DNA of 40,468 nt from positions 1 through 40,468 of the forward strand of contig JAOUPN010000003.1 of the NCBI GenBank assembly GCA_029879905.1, in the 5' to 3' direction. The translations under genes and the position numbers were made by a program. The DNA comes from Nitrospira sp. GTDB lineage: Bacteria; Nitrospirota; Nitrospiria; Nitrospirales; Nitrospiraceae. This document shows positions 661 through 6,633 of this stretch, piece by piece. Under the pieces are notes generated by a model. The model made no database searches. It saw nothing but the letters and a program-made list of their open reading frames with translations, and was not told the DNA's origin. How positions within the stretch are numbered: position 1 is the first letter of the stretch; each line of letters starts with the position of its first letter.

Positions 661-1164
661 ATGCTGACCAAGCTGCCAGGAAGACTCTTCAGACGCACCA
701 TGCATTCCCTGCTCCTCGGTTTTAGCTTGGCCACCATCCTCATGACAACCACGGCCCCCTCTGCGTTTGCCATTCCGTCGGAGGGAGACTATGAATGGGA
801 TTCAGGGCCAACCATCACCGGAACATTTCACAGTAATGGGATCGACCAATTGACGACCTGGAACTTTATTGTTTCTGGAATCACTTTCACAGAACCATTA
901 AATAACAATGGTATCGACGAGAATACTGCCTCACTATTTCGACAGACCGATGGACAGCTGACGTATTCCATCAGCTGGTATCCCGGAACTTACGGCAATG
1001 TTCAGGTGTGTGACATTACAGTTTGTGACCAACCCGTTCTAGTCGGGTTTTCCCGCGTCCCTGAACCCACAACGGCCCTGCAGTTAGCCCTCGGCTTGGG
1101 CTTGCTAGCCGGCGTGAGATATGGGATGCGTCAACGGCAGTCAGCAGGGCTGCAAATCGGGTAA
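661..1164 (+). CDS. PEP-CTERM-tagged exported protein
   Basis: A 167-residue exported protein. It has a long Sec-type signal peptide (residues 1 to about 37, ending AFA-IP after a hydrophobic LLLGFSLATILM core). The mature domain, about 95 residues, is unrecognised and holds a CDITVC pair (117-122). The C-terminus has the three-part PEP-CTERM sorting signal: VPEP at 133-136, a hydrophobic stretch 139-151, and a basic tail RYGMRQRQ. Members of this family are recognised by exosortase, processed in the inner membrane, and usually delivered to the surface or exopolysaccharide matrix. An AAAGGA ribosome binding site precedes the ATG. No exosortase or polysaccharide gene lies in the window, so the sorting machinery must be elsewhere. 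The biological role is unknown. Confidence 0.85.
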   Translation: MLTKLPGRLFRRTMHSLLLGFSLATILMTTTAPSAFAIPSEGDYEWDSGPTITGTFHSNGIDQLTTWNFIVSGITFTEPLNNNGIDENTASLFRQTDGQLTYSISWYPGTYGNVQVCDITVCDQPVLVGFSRVPEPTTALQLALGLGLLAGVRYGMRQRQSAGLQIG

Positions 1165-1303: not shown

Positions 1304-2109
1304 TCATGGCCCAGGGTCGGCTCCATCCGGTGTAGGGGTCGCCACCGGTGGTCCAGACAGGTTCCGTCCCACGTAGCACAGTTCCTCCAGCCCAATTGGA
1401 TTGCCCTTGGCAGGTTGGATCCTCCATTTACGGCGATCGTAGGGTGGCGGCGGAATCGACGGCCGCGTGTACTGGGCAATGACATGGATCCCCCCCCTCG
1501 GCCGGGCACGATGTGGAGATAACTGTCCCCGTGAAAGACAAAGAGGTAGAGAAGGGGCGCCAAATTGATATGGGTGACCGGGTACCATTCCGGAAACCAA
1601 TACTCCTGTAATTCCAGTCCTCCTCCAAATCCCTTCTGTGCACGGCTTCGGAAAAATTCTTGCCTCGTGTGAGTTTGGCGCAATCCACGGTACGACACGT
1701 CAAAAAAGTAGAACGCATTGCTCTGCAGATCAGGATATCCGAAGACGTTCCACGTATGTTGAACGACGATGTCTTCTTTCCCATCATGATTGAAGTCGAG
1801 CGTGGTCCGATGAAACTGTTCGCTCGCCCCCTCATTCTCCTTCAACGGACTCTCCAACTCCTTCATCGGACGCCAACGGATCGACGCCATTCCTGGGTGC
1901 GCATCATAATTGAGCGGCCCCGCGTAATCCGGCTCAAGAACCGTGCTTCGTTCATTTAATTCATCCAGCACGATCTGGCACAGCTGATCCTGCTTACTCA
2001 TGAGTATTTTGTACGTGGAGGGCGCGTCCTCTCCCGCTGTTGCCAGATCGGCCATCAGCAGCCAGAGTAGCCCCAACACCAGACCTGAACATTTGCGTAG
2101 GTATGTCAT
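1304..2109 (-). pseudogene. Secreted protein of unknown function, frameshifted in an 8-G tract
   Basis: From ATG 2109 the frame encodes a signal peptide (residues 1 to about 25, ending ATA-GE) and a periplasmic domain. Near 1490-1497 (eight C on the plus strand) the frame leaves homology. Read on without shift it gives a low-complexity tail ending at 1183. Shifted by one base it continues as GIHVIAQYTRPSIPPPP to a stop at 1304. The shifted product would be 268 residues, exactly the length of its paralogue at 4351-5157. Shared features are MSKxDxLC, a WRPM block, and a calcium-loop-like DxNxDGxxD at 105-113 followed by VV. The shift may be a real mutation, phase variation in the homopolymer, or an assembly error. 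Function is unknown. Confidence 0.75.
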
Positions 2110-2188
2110 CCCACCACCCCTTCGTCGATCCTCACGGCCGTTAGTCCGTCAAGACACTCACACGCTTTGGTATCCTGCATGAGATGAG
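2107..2188 (-). repeat. Conserved upstream module of the secreted-protein cluster, copy 1
   Basis: The sequence just before the start of the 1304-2109 gene matches that before the 3232-4041 gene. Written on the plus strand the shared blocks are TCGATCCTCACGGCCGT, TCAAGACACTC and GCATGAGA. A weaker match (CTTCACGGC, CTCGC, ATGCA) precedes the 2271-3137 gene. It includes the ribosome binding region (AAGGGGTGGTGGG) and probably the promoter, so it looks like duplication of gene starts with their control region. Confidence 0.6.
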
Positions 2189-2270
2189 ATACTCCGTTTA
2201 TTCTGAACCGAGACTGGATTGGGCAATCCTTTGAACAAAACCACATCCGCAACCCAGATGAAGGCCATGG

Positions 2271-3137
2271 CTAGTTCCCCTCCTTCAAGGCCTTCAGATA
2301 TTGATAGAGATCATCGTCAACTGGCTGATGGGGAAGGTCGTGATCGTCCGCATCTGTCGTTAACGACTTCCTGTTACGGAAAAAACTCTGATAGTCTTCT
2401 CTATCCATGACGAAAATGCGGCGATTGAATAGCGGAGATTTGCTCTGCAACTGTGCGTCGAATCGGAGTGCTACCCCATGCTCATAATCCACCACAAGAA
2501 ACGTATTATCTTCGAGTGGAACGATATCGCCGAACATCGTGACCATCCGATACGAAAACGCCGGGGCATTATAGGGTTCACCCTCACACATCCCGCTCGG
2601 CACAAAGATTTCAGGATGATCCAATACATAGAACAGTATCTTGTGCGCCAGTTCATTCTCTTTGTGATCGCGGACCTTGAAGTATCTCCTATATAACGAA
2701 AAACAGTCGCTATTGCTCCAAGAAGCATGACTCTCAATTATTTTTCCATTTGGAAGCCTCGCTCTCCGCTTCTGACGAGGACCATCAATGTTTGCTGGAG
2801 GGGTGACCGCCTGCTTCCCAAAAAAGAGAACGCTCAATGTTTCTCCACGAGGGCTGATATCTTCTGTGGGCGTGGGGGTCTTGCTCTTGAGCTGATACGC
2901 TAGCTGCACCTCCCCATCCGGCAGAAGATCCGCCTGAAATCGATGGCTCATGCGTGAGGGAAACGGTGCGACCCACTCCCATACATCCGGATACGGGGGA
3001 TACTTTTTGACGACGGCGGATTCTTTTTTCGTGTCGCCTGCCTGTGCCGGTTCCCCCGCCCACGCCGGCACCATACCCATGGCACAAACCGCCACTCCCA
3101 AAATCAGCGATACCACTCTGATTACCGCTATTCTCAT
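2271..3137 (-). CDS. Secreted protein of unknown function
   Basis: A 288-residue protein with a Sec signal peptide (VSLILGVAVCAMGMVPAWA, cleavage near residue 27 before GEPAQ). The mature part is polar and rich in charged residues, with no repeats or transmembrane segment after the leader. Recognisable stretches are YPDVWEWVAPFPSRMSHRF near residue 50 and DYEHGVALRFDAQLQSKSP near 215, but I cannot place the family. AAAGGATGGCGGG before ATG 3137 resembles the start region of its neighbours. It sits between two other secreted proteins on the same strand with gaps of 94 and 161 bases, so the group is probably co-regulated and exported to the periplasm. Its product is not obviously homologous to the two 268-residue paralogues. 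Confidence 0.7.
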   Translation of the reverse strand: MRIAVIRVVSLILGVAVCAMGMVPAWAGEPAQAGDTKKESAVVKKYPPYPDVWEWVAPFPSRMSHRFQADLLPDGEVQLAYQLKSKTPTPTEDISPRGETLSVLFFGKQAVTPPANIDGPRQKRRARLPNGKIIESHASWSNSDCFSLYRRYFKVRDHKENELAHKILFYVLDHPEIFVPSGMCEGEPYNAPAFSYRMVTMFGDIVPLEDNTFLVVDYEHGVALRFDAQLQSKSPLFNRRIFVMDREDYQSFFRNRKSLTTDADDHDLPHQPVDDDLYQYLKALKEGN

Positions 3138-3231
3138 CCCGCCATCCTTTCGCCAATCTTCACGGCTATTACGACATATACTCGCTCAATATTATGCAAG
3201 AGCCGTGAGTACTATTTCGCCATGCCCTTTC

Positions 3232-4041
3232 CTATGGGTTGCCAGCAACCTTTTTCGGGACACGCGGCGAATAGCCGCACATGAAGACCAAGCGATCAGG
3301 AGAGCCTTCAACAATTCGCTTCCGCTCCTCTTCCAGAGGATACCCCCAGAGGTCGAGCCGATAATTGCCAGCACCGCGGTGGAGATCAAACACGTAGTGC
3401 TGTCCACGATAGCGAATGATGCCCGAATAGGCTGGCGGCATATGTGGATCGCCTAGGGCATATCCTCCTCTGTTTCCTACGGGTAGCACACTTGGAATTT
3501 GACACGAGTCAAAGTCAAGGACTACATACTGTCCACCTTGATGAACTTCATCTCCTGGCAGGAGTTCACCATTTTCCCAAACCGGTTTATGTACCCAATG
3601 CTCCATGAAGATGACGGTTTCCGGTCCATCCGCCGGCCGATTGTTGAGATCCACCTTATAAAGCCGAACGTTGTCGGTGTAATAGATGGTCGGCTGAGGC
3701 GGGCCTTCGAATGTTTCTTCCTTGTTCAGTTGAAGGTTCGGACATCGCTCCAGGATGGGTTTCAGGACAGGGTCTCTATACTTCTCGGCCTCCAGCACGG
3801 GCTGAATATGGGTGATGTGCCGTTGAACTTGGAAGTCATTGAAAAATGCCTGACAGAATTGGGCATCGCGCAACGCTGCATACACCTCGACGACCATGCG
3901 TTGTGCGATCTTCTGGATTTGTTCACTGAGCGTCGAAGGCGCCTCCCCCCGCGCTAAGGTCGCTCCCGTCATGCCAAGAACTACCGTCACACACCCTGCC
4001 AGCATCCATGCCCTCACCGACGCTCTCCAGTGCTTTATCAT
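3232..4041 (-). CDS. Secreted protein of unknown function
   Basis: A 269-residue protein when started at ATG 4041, which has an AAAGGA site about 8 bases upstream; a GTG at 4068 would add nine residues ahead of the signal peptide and is less likely. The leader AWMLAGCVTVVLGMTGATLA ends near residue 32. The mature protein contains FCQAFFNDF, CPNLQLN, a DFDSCQIPS block and YRGQHYVFDL near residue 215. It ends in a cysteine-containing VFMCGYSPRVPKK, loosely like the ends of the two 268-residue neighbours (ICYFMAEVPKRRP, LCYVGRNLSGPP). I do not recognise a family. It shares its upstream module with the gene at 1304-2109, suggesting duplication and common expression. Confidence 0.7.
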   Translation of the reverse strand: MIKHWRASVRAWMLAGCVTVVLGMTGATLARGEAPSTLSEQIQKIAQRMVVEVYAALRDAQFCQAFFNDFQVQRHITHIQPVLEAEKYRDPVLKPILERCPNLQLNKEETFEGPPQPTIYYTDNVRLYKVDLNNRPADGPETVIFMEHWVHKPVWENGELLPGDEVHQGGQYVVLDFDSCQIPSVLPVGNRGGYALGDPHMPPAYSGIIRYRGQHYVFDLHRGAGNYRLDLWGYPLEEERKRIVEGSPDRLVFMCGYSPRVPKKVAGNP

Positions 4042-4123
4042 GCCGTCATCCTTTCCATCGATCCTCACGGCCGTCGCTTCTTCAAGACACTCGCAGGCAC
4101 TTGGGATTCATGCATGAGACGAG
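4039..4123 (-). repeat. Conserved upstream module of the secreted-protein cluster, copy 2
   Basis: This is the second copy of the module at 2107-2188. It carries TCGATCCTCACGGCCGT, TCAAGACACTC and GCATGAGA blocks in the same order and spacing. The start region here reads GGAAAGGATGACGGC before the ATG. Confidence 0.6.
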
Positions 4124-4188
4124 GAACCACTGACATCCATGGAGAGGGAAACAGGCGATTCAGAAATTCGTATGACTGCCGCTTGCAT

Positions 4189-4216
4189 CCCCTCTCCCTC
4201 TGTTGAGGAAGAGGGG
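4189..4216. terminator. Hairpin between secreted-protein genes
   Basis: CCCCTCT with CCTC pairs with GAGG and AGAGGGG around a TGTT loop, with one unpaired base inside. It lies 135 bases beyond the stop of the minus-strand gene at 4351-5157 and has no clear T run, so termination is only possible. The rest of the stretch 4124-4350 shows no gene. Confidence 0.35.
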
Positions 4217-4350
4217 AAGAGTGAGGGTGGAAGTCATGGGAAGTATATTGAGATAGCAACGCCTGCCACCAGTACACCAATCTGCCACAGATCAGTGCAC
4301 TACATCGCCTTGTTCATTCGCTAACGATTTTATGAGGACCATCTCACGTT

Positions 4351-5157
4351 TCAATGCCTCAAGATATATCCGTCCTCCAGTCGCTCAAGCGGCCGCCGTT
4401 TCGGCACCTCTGCCATGAAGTAGCAGATATCCTCAAGCCCTTCTAACCAGTGCTTAGGCAGACGACCGCCTGGCGTTTTCTTTACGTTCCGTGGCGGCAG
4501 CACCTCTCGCATATACTTCGCCACAATATGAACGGTAATACCCATATTACTGGGAACCTGATGATCGACATGCAAATACGTGGCATCTTGAAATCGAAAG
4601 GGCGTGATGAAGACCGGAGCATCATTGCGCTCGTCTAATCTGAGATCCATGTTTGAATCAGGAAGGTTCCTGAGGTAATATCCGGGCAAATCCAGCAAGC
4701 CTGTGCCAACATTTCCATGCTGCTCATAAATATCTGAAAAAGTCCGAGCAGATTTGTACCCGACATACGCACCGTCAAACATCCAGAAATACTGGCGTGT
4801 GGTATCCCATCCTTCCGGCGAGTTCCAGCAGAGGCTACGCTTTACAACCACATCGATCGTGCCATCATTATTGAGATCAAATTGCGCCCAGCGCACCAAC
4901 TCGCATTCACCATACTCACTAAACCAGTCTTGAATTTTCGGCATTGGACGCCAATCGATGACGGGGGTCATCTGGTGTGTGCGAAACCGGATTTCTCCAT
5001 CGTATTCGCGCATGTCATGATTCAGCTGTGAACGGACCGTCTCGCACAATTTATCATCCTTACTCATGACCGGTTGATACTGAATGGTGGCCCCCGCTAC
5101 CCCCGTGAGAACCAGCACATACACGAGAACCAGCCCGCTCACCTTCATCTGTTGCAT
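4351..5157 (-). CDS. Secreted protein with DxNxDGxxD loop, intact paralogue of the frameshifted gene
   Basis: A 268-residue exported protein. The signal peptide spans residues 1 to about 23 (VSGLVLVYVLVLTGVAGA). The mature part opens with MSKDDKLCETV and has a WRPMPKI block near 70. A DLNNDGTIDVVV motif at 94-105 matches the DxNxDGxxD calcium-binding loop pattern of FG-GAP/VCBS, dockerin and EF-hand-like repeats. The C-terminal region has YLHVDHQVPSNMG and ends near DICYFMAEVPKRRP. It aligns along its length with the shift-corrected product of 1304-2109. GGATGGAAGGCA precedes ATG 5157; an ATG at 5148 is an alternative. Function is unknown; periplasmic or surface location is inferred from the leader. 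Confidence 0.75.
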   Translation of the reverse strand: MQQMKVSGLVLVYVLVLTGVAGATIQYQPVMSKDDKLCETVRSQLNHDMREYDGEIRFRTHQMTPVIDWRPMPKIQDWFSEYGECELVRWAQFDLNNDGTIDVVVKRSLCWNSPEGWDTTRQYFWMFDGAYVGYKSARTFSDIYEQHGNVGTGLLDLPGYYLRNLPDSNMDLRLDERNDAPVFITPFRFQDATYLHVDHQVPSNMGITVHIVAKYMREVLPPRNVKKTPGGRLPKHWLEGLEDICYFMAEVPKRRPLERLEDGYILRH

Positions 5158-5319
5158 TGCCTTCCATCCTTGAAAGAATAAAGAGACCGGCTACTGTTTC
5201 TGACGTCTCCCCTGCCTATCCGCGTACGGTTGCCACCATCAGCATATTGCCATTGCATCGTGTCTCCCCCCTGCTTGCCTTACGCCTTCTTGTTTCACTG
5301 CCGCGCCTCATCTTCTGAC

Positions 5320-5365
5320 GGGGACAGCCCCCACGCGCGGTCGCGGGGAAGGGGGGCAGTCCCCT
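5320..5365. repeat. GGGGAC-type hairpin repeat, copy 2 (best formed)
   Basis: GGGGACAGCCCCC (5320-5332) and GGGGGCAGTCCCC (5352-5364) form a 13-bp stem with one central A-A mismatch and a 19-base loop. It lies in the roughly 490-bp gene-free stretch 5158-5650, which holds two such hairpins and otherwise nothing I recognise. The layout resembles REP sequences mobilised by RAYT-type transposases; no such transposase is present in the window. Confidence 0.65.
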
Positions 5366-5465
5366 GGGCTCGCCTGAACGGCTGGTTCGGCGCGATACGG
5401 CTCCACTTTATCTCTATTCCTATGTATGTGGTAGTGAATCGTGCGAACGACTCAGACATTCGGAT

Positions 5466-5538
5466 GGGGACCAGACCCCACGCCTGCGGCGGGACTCGAT
5501 CCTCCGACATCCGGAGCGGGGAAGGGAGGCAGTCCCCT
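5466..5538. repeat. GGGGAC-type hairpin repeat, copy 3
   Basis: GGGGACCAGACCCC (5466-5479) is separated by about 38 bases from GGGGAAGGGAGGCAGTCCCC (5518-5537). The outer GGGGAC and GTCCCC arms pair, but the inner part has diverged from copy 2. It lies just upstream of the AbiEii-like gene pair. Confidence 0.55.
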
Positions 5539-5650
5539 AGTTGTTGCCCTTCCCCTCTTGACCATTGCTAGACACCCATCCGGTTGGCAATTGGAGCATT
5601 CCGGCGTAGAATTCGCCATCAGGTTTTGAGACATGCTTGGAGTGATCCCC

Positions 5651-5947
5651 ATGAATGATCCCCTCGCCGACCATCTGTTGCCGCTGGCCCGGAAGTATCT
5701 CTGGTGGATGCCACCGGACGAGGCGGTCACGATGCCTGACCGTGTTGTGGCACAGGTGATGAATCTTGGTGATTATGACGACGTGCTGCTTATAACCTCG
5801 GTTGTGGGCGAGGCCGCGCTCTGCCGAGTGCTACAGCAGGCCGAGATCGGGCAGTTTTCGCCGAAGTCATGGGCCTATTGGCACTATCGCCTTGGACTCG
5901 CCGCTCCTGACCACGTCCCCCCCATGCCCACCAGGACCGTGGCATGA
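5651..5947 (+). CDS. Small partner protein of AbiEii-like nucleotidyltransferase
   Basis: A 98-residue soluble protein when started at ATG 5651 (CTTGGAG lies about 9 bases upstream); an ATG at 5633 would add six residues with a poorer site. It contains ARKYLWWMPPDEA near the start, a central helical segment (DDVLLITSVVGEAALCRVLQQAE) and a C-terminal SPKSWAYWHYRLGL. This resembles the small DUF6922-like proteins found next to AbiEii-type genes, though the family label is from memory. Its stop overlaps the start of the next gene by four bases (ATGA), so the two are translationally coupled. By analogy with type IV toxin-antitoxin pairs it may be the antidote, but it has no obvious AbiEi winged-helix. 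Confidence 0.75.
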   Translation: MNDPLADHLLPLARKYLWWMPPDEAVTMPDRVVAQVMNLGDYDDVLLITSVVGEAALCRVLQQAEIGQFSPKSWAYWHYRLGLAAPDHVPPMPTRTVA

Positions 5948-6633
5948 TGCACCGTTTTGTCCCTTGCCTCTCGACTCTCCCGCCCGCACAACGACAGCTC
6001 TGGCTCGCGCTTCGACCCGCTCCGAACCTGGGCCTGGTCTTGTATGGCGGGACCGCAATCGCCGTACGATTAGGGCATCGGCCATCCGTCGATTTCGACT
6101 TTTTCACAGATCAGCCGCTGGACAAGCCGGCTCTGTTTGACGCTTTCCCCTTCCTCCGCCAAGCCACGGTGCTCCAGGATACCCCGAATGCACTCACGGT
6201 CCTCATCAAGTCGGAGCAAGCCGCGGACCAATTTGTCAAAATCTCATTCTTTGGGACCATCTCGTTTGGACGGATAGGAGAACCGGAGATGACCGATGAT
6301 GGGATACTCCAGGTTGCATCACTCGACGATCTGATGGCAACCAAGCTAAAGGTCGTCTTACAGCGGATCGAAGCAAAGGATTATCAAGACATTGTCGCGA
6401 TGCTCGCAGCCGGGGTGGATCTGTCCAAGGGGTTAGCCGGAGCCCGCGCCCTGTACGGCCCAGCCTTTCAACCCAGCGAAAGTCTCAAAGCACTGGTTTA
6501 CTTTGAAGGAGGCGATCTTCATCGTCTTTCGCTAGATGAACGTATGAGCCTCATCCAAGCAGCAAGCACGGTACGGACTCTTCCCCTCGTAACCATCCAA
6601 TCACACCATCTCGCCGCTAACGACAGGGGCTGA
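5944..6633 (+). CDS. AbiEii/AbiGii-family nucleotidyltransferase, putative toxin
   Basis: A 229-residue protein. The DNA polymerase beta-type nucleotidyltransferase core is visible as LVLYGGTAIAVRLGHRPSVDFDFF at about 32-55: a Gly-Gly motif followed by the DxD metal-binding pair (VDFDF). A later LDDLMATKLKVVLQRIEAKDYQDI helix (about 128-151) holds the Lys and Asp typical of the AbiEii/DUF1814 family. Characterised AbiEii toxins transfer nucleotides to tRNA or other acceptors and act in phage defence or plasmid stability; the substrate here is unknown. It overlaps its small partner by four bases, forming a two-gene module flanked by hairpin repeats, which suits a transferable element. Confidence 0.8.
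   Translation: MMHRFVPCLSTLPPAQRQLWLALRPAPNLGLVLYGGTAIAVRLGHRPSVDFDFFTDQPLDKPALFDAFPFLRQATVLQDTPNALTVLIKSEQAADQFVKISFFGTISFGRIGEPEMTDDGILQVASLDDLMATKLKVVLQRIEAKDYQDIVAMLAAGVDLSKGLAGARALYGPAFQPSESLKALVYFEGGDLHRLSLDERMSLIQAASTVRTLPLVTIQSHHLAANDRG

What the first reader, a model, noticed from the sequence alone, without database searches (positions are those of the whole stretch)
1304..5157. Four-gene cluster of uncharacterised secreted proteins with shared upstream modules
Four consecutive minus-strand genes all have signal peptides. Two are clear paralogues with a calcium-loop-like DxNxDGxxD. Two others have similar cysteine-containing C-termini or size. A roughly 80-bp block including the ribosome site is repeated ahead of the first and third genes, with a weaker version ahead of the second. 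This suggests amplification of a gene plus its control region, and a surface or periplasmic system with no known family.
Basis: partly seen in the sequence, partly recalled or inferred. Interest (0 to 1): 0.6.

Follow-up and report, generated by a model that had tools for sequence, protein, structure and literature searches.

The report
Toxin-less immunity gene array in Nitrospira
These four small secreted-protein genes look like leftover antidotes: in related Nitrospira bacteria the same families sit tightly beside genes for large exported lysozyme-type and other toxins, but here the toxin genes are gone, leaving at least one 24-codon stump, so the cell probably keeps protection against neighbours' toxins without making them.

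Summary
Four minus-strand genes (A 4351-5157, B 3232-4041, C 2271-3137, D 1304-2109, D frameshifted at an 8-G run) encode signal-peptide proteins with no Pfam/NCBIfam match. A and D are paralogues. B and D share an 86-bp leader and C has a shorter version. The "amplified gene plus control region" reading fails: B and D share the leader but not the protein. In other Nitrospira these families lie inside islands built as X (conserved 105-aa gene) -> [signal-peptide protein -> RTX exporter substrate with lysozyme, lipase or unknown head]n, near type I secretion genes. Antidote class segregates with toxin class (0 of 10,000 permutations). The leader holds a junction motif (GAAAGGATGGCGGCATGA) found, in 1.3 Mb, only at antidote starts; after toxin genes it encodes the toxin's last residues. 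Right after C the window keeps a 24-codon stub of the toxin that follows C in relatives, and C-stub-D matches an X-C-toxin-A/D island in a relative. The window's genome shows no RTX repeats. Best reading: an orphan immunity (polyimmunity) array made by toxin loss. The inhibition mechanism (calcium-loop, XAC2610-like) is inferred, and the genome is a fragmented MAG.

The parts
4351..5157 (-). Gene A: 268-aa secreted protein, Ca-loop DLNNDGTID; A/D immunity family
   Evidence: ORF; in relatives, family members sit directly beside lysozyme-RTX genes
3232..4041 (-). Gene B: 269-aa secreted protein, immunity-type
   Evidence: Homologues: L052 4126-4863, between a lysozyme-RTX gene and a giant lysozyme-RTX gene; L018, directly after gene X with no toxin
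2271..3137 (-). Gene C: 288-aa secreted protein, immunity-type
   Evidence: The two C homologues found in other genomes both lie in the order X - C - RTX effector; dN 0.26 / dS 0.80 against the second copy in the same genome
1304..2109 (-). Gene D: paralogue of A, split by a frameshift at the 8-G run
1490..1497 (-). Run of eight G where gene D changes frame
2197..2268 (-). 24-codon stub of an RTX effector gene (MAFIWVADVVLFKGLPNPVSVQNK), starting 3 bases after the last base of the gene C ORF
   Evidence: 12/24 identical to the start of the effector that follows C in L087; gapless 85-nt DNA alignment, score 35 against background maximum 15; tblastn E 1.35e-7
2106..2188 (-). Leader/junction of gene D, copy of the B leader
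   Evidence: 86-bp alignment
4038..4123 (-). Leader/junction of gene B
   Evidence: 86-bp alignment
3134..3171 (-). Leader of gene C, shorter version
4038..4055 (-). Junction motif GAAAGGATGACGGCATGA overlapping the start codon of B; reads MERMTA-stop, as the last codons of RTX effectors in relatives
3134..3151 (-). Junction motif GAAAGGATGGCGGGATGA overlapping the start codon of C

Best explanation
The cluster is an orphan (toxin-less) polyimmunity locus. Each gene derives from an antidote-toxin module of a kind found across Nitrospira: a conserved small gene X, then one or more pairs of a signal-peptide immunity gene and a translationally coupled RTX effector exported by a nearby type I secretion system. 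In this lineage the effector genes were lost (a 24-codon effector stub remains between C and D) while immunity genes were kept. The four proteins would be exported to the periplasm and bind incoming effectors from kin or neighbouring Nitrospira. For A, B and D the effectors are probably peptidoglycan hydrolases of the phage-lysozyme type; for C the effector head has no known family. Shown: gene order, tight coupling, class segregation of antidotes and effectors, the stub, the junction motif, absence of RTX repeats from the held genome. Inferred: that the proteins neutralise these effectors, that the effectors kill bacteria, and that they leave by the neighbouring type I machine. More speculative: A/D insert the loop after their calcium-binding turn into the lysozyme active site, as proposed for XAC2610.
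For: Pfam finds RTX repeats and Phage_lysozyme in the effector beside A-family genes in L016 and RTX repeats in the effector between C and A/D in L015. L052 has X - lipoprotein - lipase fragment - lipoprotein - RTX lipase - A - lysozyme-RTX - B - giant lysozyme-RTX. Gene X gives 48 loci, nearly all Nitrospira; 29 of 40 with at least 3 kb downstream have an RTX ORF within 6 kb. 33 upstream-gene/RTX pairs lie -44 to +66 nt apart and their classes segregate, 0 of 10,000 permutations. C's effector start survives as a stub after window C, and after the C copy on C108 as a weaker in-place match without its start codon (E 0.62). L015 shows X - C (broken) - RTX effector - A/D family, the order the window would have had. 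The junction motif occurs in 1.3 Mb only at antidote starts. Own genome: no PF00353 match although 99.66% complete. C is under purifying selection. XAC2610 is the top PDB sequence hit of the widened A profile, aligned at the Ca loop and the loop after it, but at E 0.12 (XAC2610 function from PMC10933484).
Against: The genome is a 580-contig MAG and long RTX genes break assemblies: a type I ABC/HlyD pair ends at a contig edge (C111), so toxins could lie in gaps. Only gene C has a stub; none was found after A, B or D. The A family also has a roughly 206-aa single-copy member beside uracil-DNA glycosylase in many Nitrospira, so the family is not only immunity. Fold searches gave no convincing match. 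No cognate binding was tested.
Confidence: 0.8

Rival explanations
1. The genome still carries the cognate RTX toxins, unassembled, and the array protects against its own toxins.
For: MAG of 580 contigs; type I ABC gene cut at the edge of contig C111; many Nitrospira RTX genes are about 9 kb and repetitive.
Against: No PF00353 hit in a 99.66% complete bin, while 47 of 79 genomes of the genus search match a lysozyme-RTX query; C is followed directly by a truncated effector and then D.
Confidence: 0.12
2. The signal-peptide proteins are not antidotes but chaperones or export factors of the RTX proteins.
For: Tight operonic coupling would fit either role.
Against: By general knowledge, type I substrates cross both membranes without a periplasmic stage, so a periplasmic partner has little to fold; partners change with the effector head although the RTX export part is shared; they persist without substrates here and in L019.
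Confidence: 0.07
3. One reading: an independent surface system made by tandem amplification of a gene with its control region.
For: A and D are paralogues; B and D share 86 bp upstream.
Against: B and D are not detectably homologous proteins; A has no copy of the leader; the same junction motif precedes antidote genes in other genomes.
Confidence: 0.03
4. The cluster is decaying debris without function.
For: D is frameshifted; homologues in L015 and L016 are broken; one toxin stub.
Against: A, B and C are intact; C has dN/dS about 0.32 against its second copy, although that divergence may predate toxin loss.
Confidence: 0.1

Closest known systems
Polyimmunity loci of polymorphic toxin systems (Zhang et al. 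2012, PMC3482391)
   Same: Tandem, mostly unrelated immunity genes without toxins, proposed as backup against non-kin toxins
   Different: Secreted periplasmic proteins tied to RTX/type I effectors. In the text searched, that survey mentions type I export for large RTX toxins in its background and does not use the term periplasmic; extended polyimmunity loci were then reported only in proteobacteria, bacteroidetes, firmicutes and actinobacteria
XAC2609/XAC2610 lysozyme effector and immunity pair of Xanthomonas (PMC10933484)
   Same: Lysozyme-like effector with a periplasmic inhibitor that has a conserved Ca-binding loop; the A profile aligns to XAC2610 over that loop and the following loop
   Different: Type IV secretion, GH19 enzyme, lipoprotein inhibitor; similarity here is not significant (E 0.12)
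EsaG/TipC immunity arrays of type VII systems (PMC9484751)
   Same: Tandem immunity genes with short homology blocks reaching into intergenic DNA, where recombination reshapes the array
   Different: Gram-positive; tandem copies of one immunity family, whereas here one leader precedes different families
Cdz contact-dependent killing of Caulobacter (PMC5380434)
   Different: Small glycine-zipper toxins and a membrane immunity protein; no RTX enzymes

Membership tests
Polyimmunity / orphan immunity locus | Tandem immunity-type genes whose homologues are paired with toxins elsewhere | tested here: met
Polyimmunity / orphan immunity locus | No cognate toxin gene beside them | tested here: met
   Only a 24-codon stub after C; no PF00353 match in the held genome
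Polyimmunity / orphan immunity locus | Proteins neutralise toxins | not testable with these tools
   needs biochemistry or competition assays
XAC2610 family (gene A/D) | Sequence homology to XAC2610 | tested here: inconclusive
   Top PDB hit of the A6 profile but E 0.12
XAC2610 family (gene A/D) | Same fold | tested here: inconclusive
   Models with pLDDT 67.7 (A) and 84.4 (core member L027); weak matches only, several of them beta-propellers
XAC2610 family (gene A/D) | Inhibits its lysozyme-like effector | not tested
   experiment needed
Known curated families (Pfam, NCBIfam, PADLOC) | Match above cut-off | tested here: not met
   A-D in Pfam and NCBIfam; A-C in PADLOC

The most novel reading that the evidence does not exclude
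Nitrospira carry an undescribed polymorphic toxin system: gene X plus interchangeable periplasmic-antidote/RTX-enzyme pairs (lysozyme, lipase and unknown heads) exported by a type I secretion system, with a fixed junction motif that joins modules. The window is an immunity-only derivative of it.
Probability: 0.65. Interest if true: 0.7.

Novelty: new variant of a known kind. Interest (0 to 1): 0.57.

Why it matters
It points to a weapon system in Nitrospira, nitrifying bacteria common in water and soil, and to a way of becoming immune without paying for the weapon. It names matched toxin-antidote pairs that can be tested in E. coli. No paper in the searched library links Nitrospira with RTX type I effectors and immunity; the library lacks most subscription journals.

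Tried and rejected
Profile-profile comparison with A3 failed for technical reasons; a rerun with A2 found no significant link of A to B. PDB sequence search with A alone: nothing credible. Foldseek and VIA on two models: no match above noise; CarG (Z 5.0) and KICSTOR (Z 5.4) are not used as evidence; XAC2610 was not in the lists, which excludes nothing. Gene X by eye resembled DUF3467, but Pfam gave no such hit. Toxin stubs after A, B and D: searched, none found. Gene X in the window: none.

Full report
What is in the window. Four minus-strand genes, A (5157-4351), B (4041-3232), C (3137-2271) and D (2109 to about 1304), encode proteins of about 270-290 residues that start with a signal peptide (judged from sequence). 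None has a gathering-level Pfam or NCBIfam match; A and D show only weak EF-hand or FG-GAP hints at the motif DxNxDGxxD. A and D are paralogues (34%, E 2.7e-14). D changes frame at eight Gs (1490-1497), and the C-terminus matching A lies in the other frame. The leaders of B and D align over 86 bp, far above shuffles, with a shorter version before C and none before A.

Where relatives of these genes live. The window is contig C264 of a 4.15-Mb, 580-contig assembly. Two genomes of the same search genus have contigs equal in length to named Nitrospira records (G086:C15, 38,261 bases, and JARFXQ010000026; G098:C3, 100,766 bases, and CABVRR010000003), so the window is taken to be Nitrospira. In that genus the families are found beside RTX genes. 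G022 (L016): A-family gene, lysozyme-RTX gene, second A-family gene, second lysozyme-like gene. G062 (L052): gene X, lipoprotein, truncated lipase, lipoprotein, RTX lipase, A-family gene, lysozyme-RTX gene, B homologue, giant lysozyme-RTX gene, most of them overlapping or nearly touching. G018 (L015): gene X, C homologue (broken), RTX effector, A/D-family gene. G086 (L087, L147): X, C, RTX effector, then a type I ABC gene. G025 (L018): X then B, with no toxin listed.

A general architecture. Gene X (about 105 aa, no Pfam family) gives 48 loci in the species collection, nearly all Nitrospira. Of 40 loci with at least 3 kb downstream, 29 have an RTX ORF of at least 250 aa starting within 6 kb. 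The common order is X, signal-peptide protein, RTX protein, often near 3,000 residues, with lipase class 3, Mbeg1-like or lysozyme heads among those scanned. Type I ABC/HlyD genes follow X in L091 and L118 and lie nearby in L090, L147 and L055. Thirty-three upstream-gene/RTX pairs have gaps of -44 to +66 nt; clustering antidotes and effector heads separately, the classes segregate: lysozyme-type and other short effectors go only with A, B, C and EVCEAYL-type proteins, lipase-type effectors with other classes; 0 of 10,000 permutations reach the observed value (adjusted Rand 0.22). Two of these pairs (L098, L116) are split-ORF artefacts, and single linkage lumps heads coarsely. In particular the L015 effector joined the lysozyme group, possibly through a shared region outside the head, so the catalytic class of C's effector stays unknown.

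The leader explained. The end of the leader, GAAAGGATGGCGGCATGA, overlaps the start codon. After an effector gene it also encodes the last residues of the toxin (MERMAA-stop). In 1.3 Mb of fetched DNA the pattern occurs only at such starts: window B and C, the C copy on C108, L052 twice, L015, L018, L123, L125, L126, L127. D carries a diverged form. The shared module is thus a cassette junction, not an amplified promoter-gene unit.

The toxin stub. Three bases after the last base of the C ORF, the window reads MAFIWVADVVLFKGLPNPVSVQNK; the effector after C in L087 starts MPFTGTADVIRFKGLLNDVLIQNE. Twelve of 24 residues agree without a gap, the DNA aligns over 85 nt with score 35 against a background maximum of 15, and tblastn gives E 1.35e-7 against the four small downstream regions. 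The D leader begins 9 bp beyond. The order C, stub, leader, D equals C, effector, A/D-family in L015 with the effector removed. The second C gene of this genome (C108, L017) is preceded by a decayed end of X (E 0.05) and followed by a similar stub without its start codon (E 0.62; both weak alone, but in the expected places). The held genome has no RTX repeat, a diverged X remnant on C218, and a type I ABC/HlyD pair cut by a contig edge. G022 holds a comparable toxin-less stretch in L019: X remnants, a lipase-type antidote (32% to the L097 one, E 3e-33) and an A-family gene.

How it most likely works. Antidotes meet these enzymes in the periplasm, which fits the signal peptides. For A/D a widened profile finds XAC2610, the calcium-loop inhibitor of a lysozyme-like effector, as its best PDB sequence match, aligned at the calcium loop and the loop after it; E 0.12 is not significant (PMC10933484). 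The model of a related core protein is confident (pLDDT 84.4), but fold searches gave only weak matches, several to beta-propellers. C is under purifying selection against its copy (dN 0.26, dS 0.80), though that divergence may be older than toxin loss. I put 0.8 on the orphan-immunity reading and about 0.35 on the XAC2610-like mechanism for A/D.

Limits. The MAG may lack assembled toxins; only C has a stub; a roughly 206-aa A-family member sits beside uracil-DNA glycosylase in many Nitrospira and is not tied to RTX genes; no function was measured.

Noticed in passing
window 5944-6633 (+) and 5633-5947 (+): AbiEii-type nucleotidyl transferase (Pfam E 4.6e-16) next to a small ORF without a family, directly upstream of the array; possible AbiE-like defence pair.
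   Followed up: partly
L027-L051: A roughly 206-aa single-copy A-family protein lies next to a uracil-DNA glycosylase gene in most of these Nitrospira loci; apparently a resident periplasmic protein, not found in the window's genome.
   Followed up: partly
L015 6516-6842 and 47 other loci: Gene X, a conserved small protein of unknown family that heads the toxin islands; also in Variovorax sp. JS1663 (L129) and a betaproteobacterial MAG (L132, L134).
   Followed up: partly
window about 1230-1256, 5340-5380, 5500-5560; L146 2354-2380: Dispersed GC-rich repeats (GGGGACTGCCCCCCTTCCC) around the array, REP-like; RAYT-type transposase genes occur beside related loci (L019).
   Followed up: no
window 661-1164 (+): Secreted protein with a PEP-CTERM-like tail (VPEPTTALQLALGLGLLAG) just beyond gene D.
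   Followed up: no
L145 (C111) 2373-5350: Type I ABC (cut at contig end) and HlyD genes next to a gene related to the one after TolC in L091; the TolC gene seen there is missing here.
   Followed up: partly
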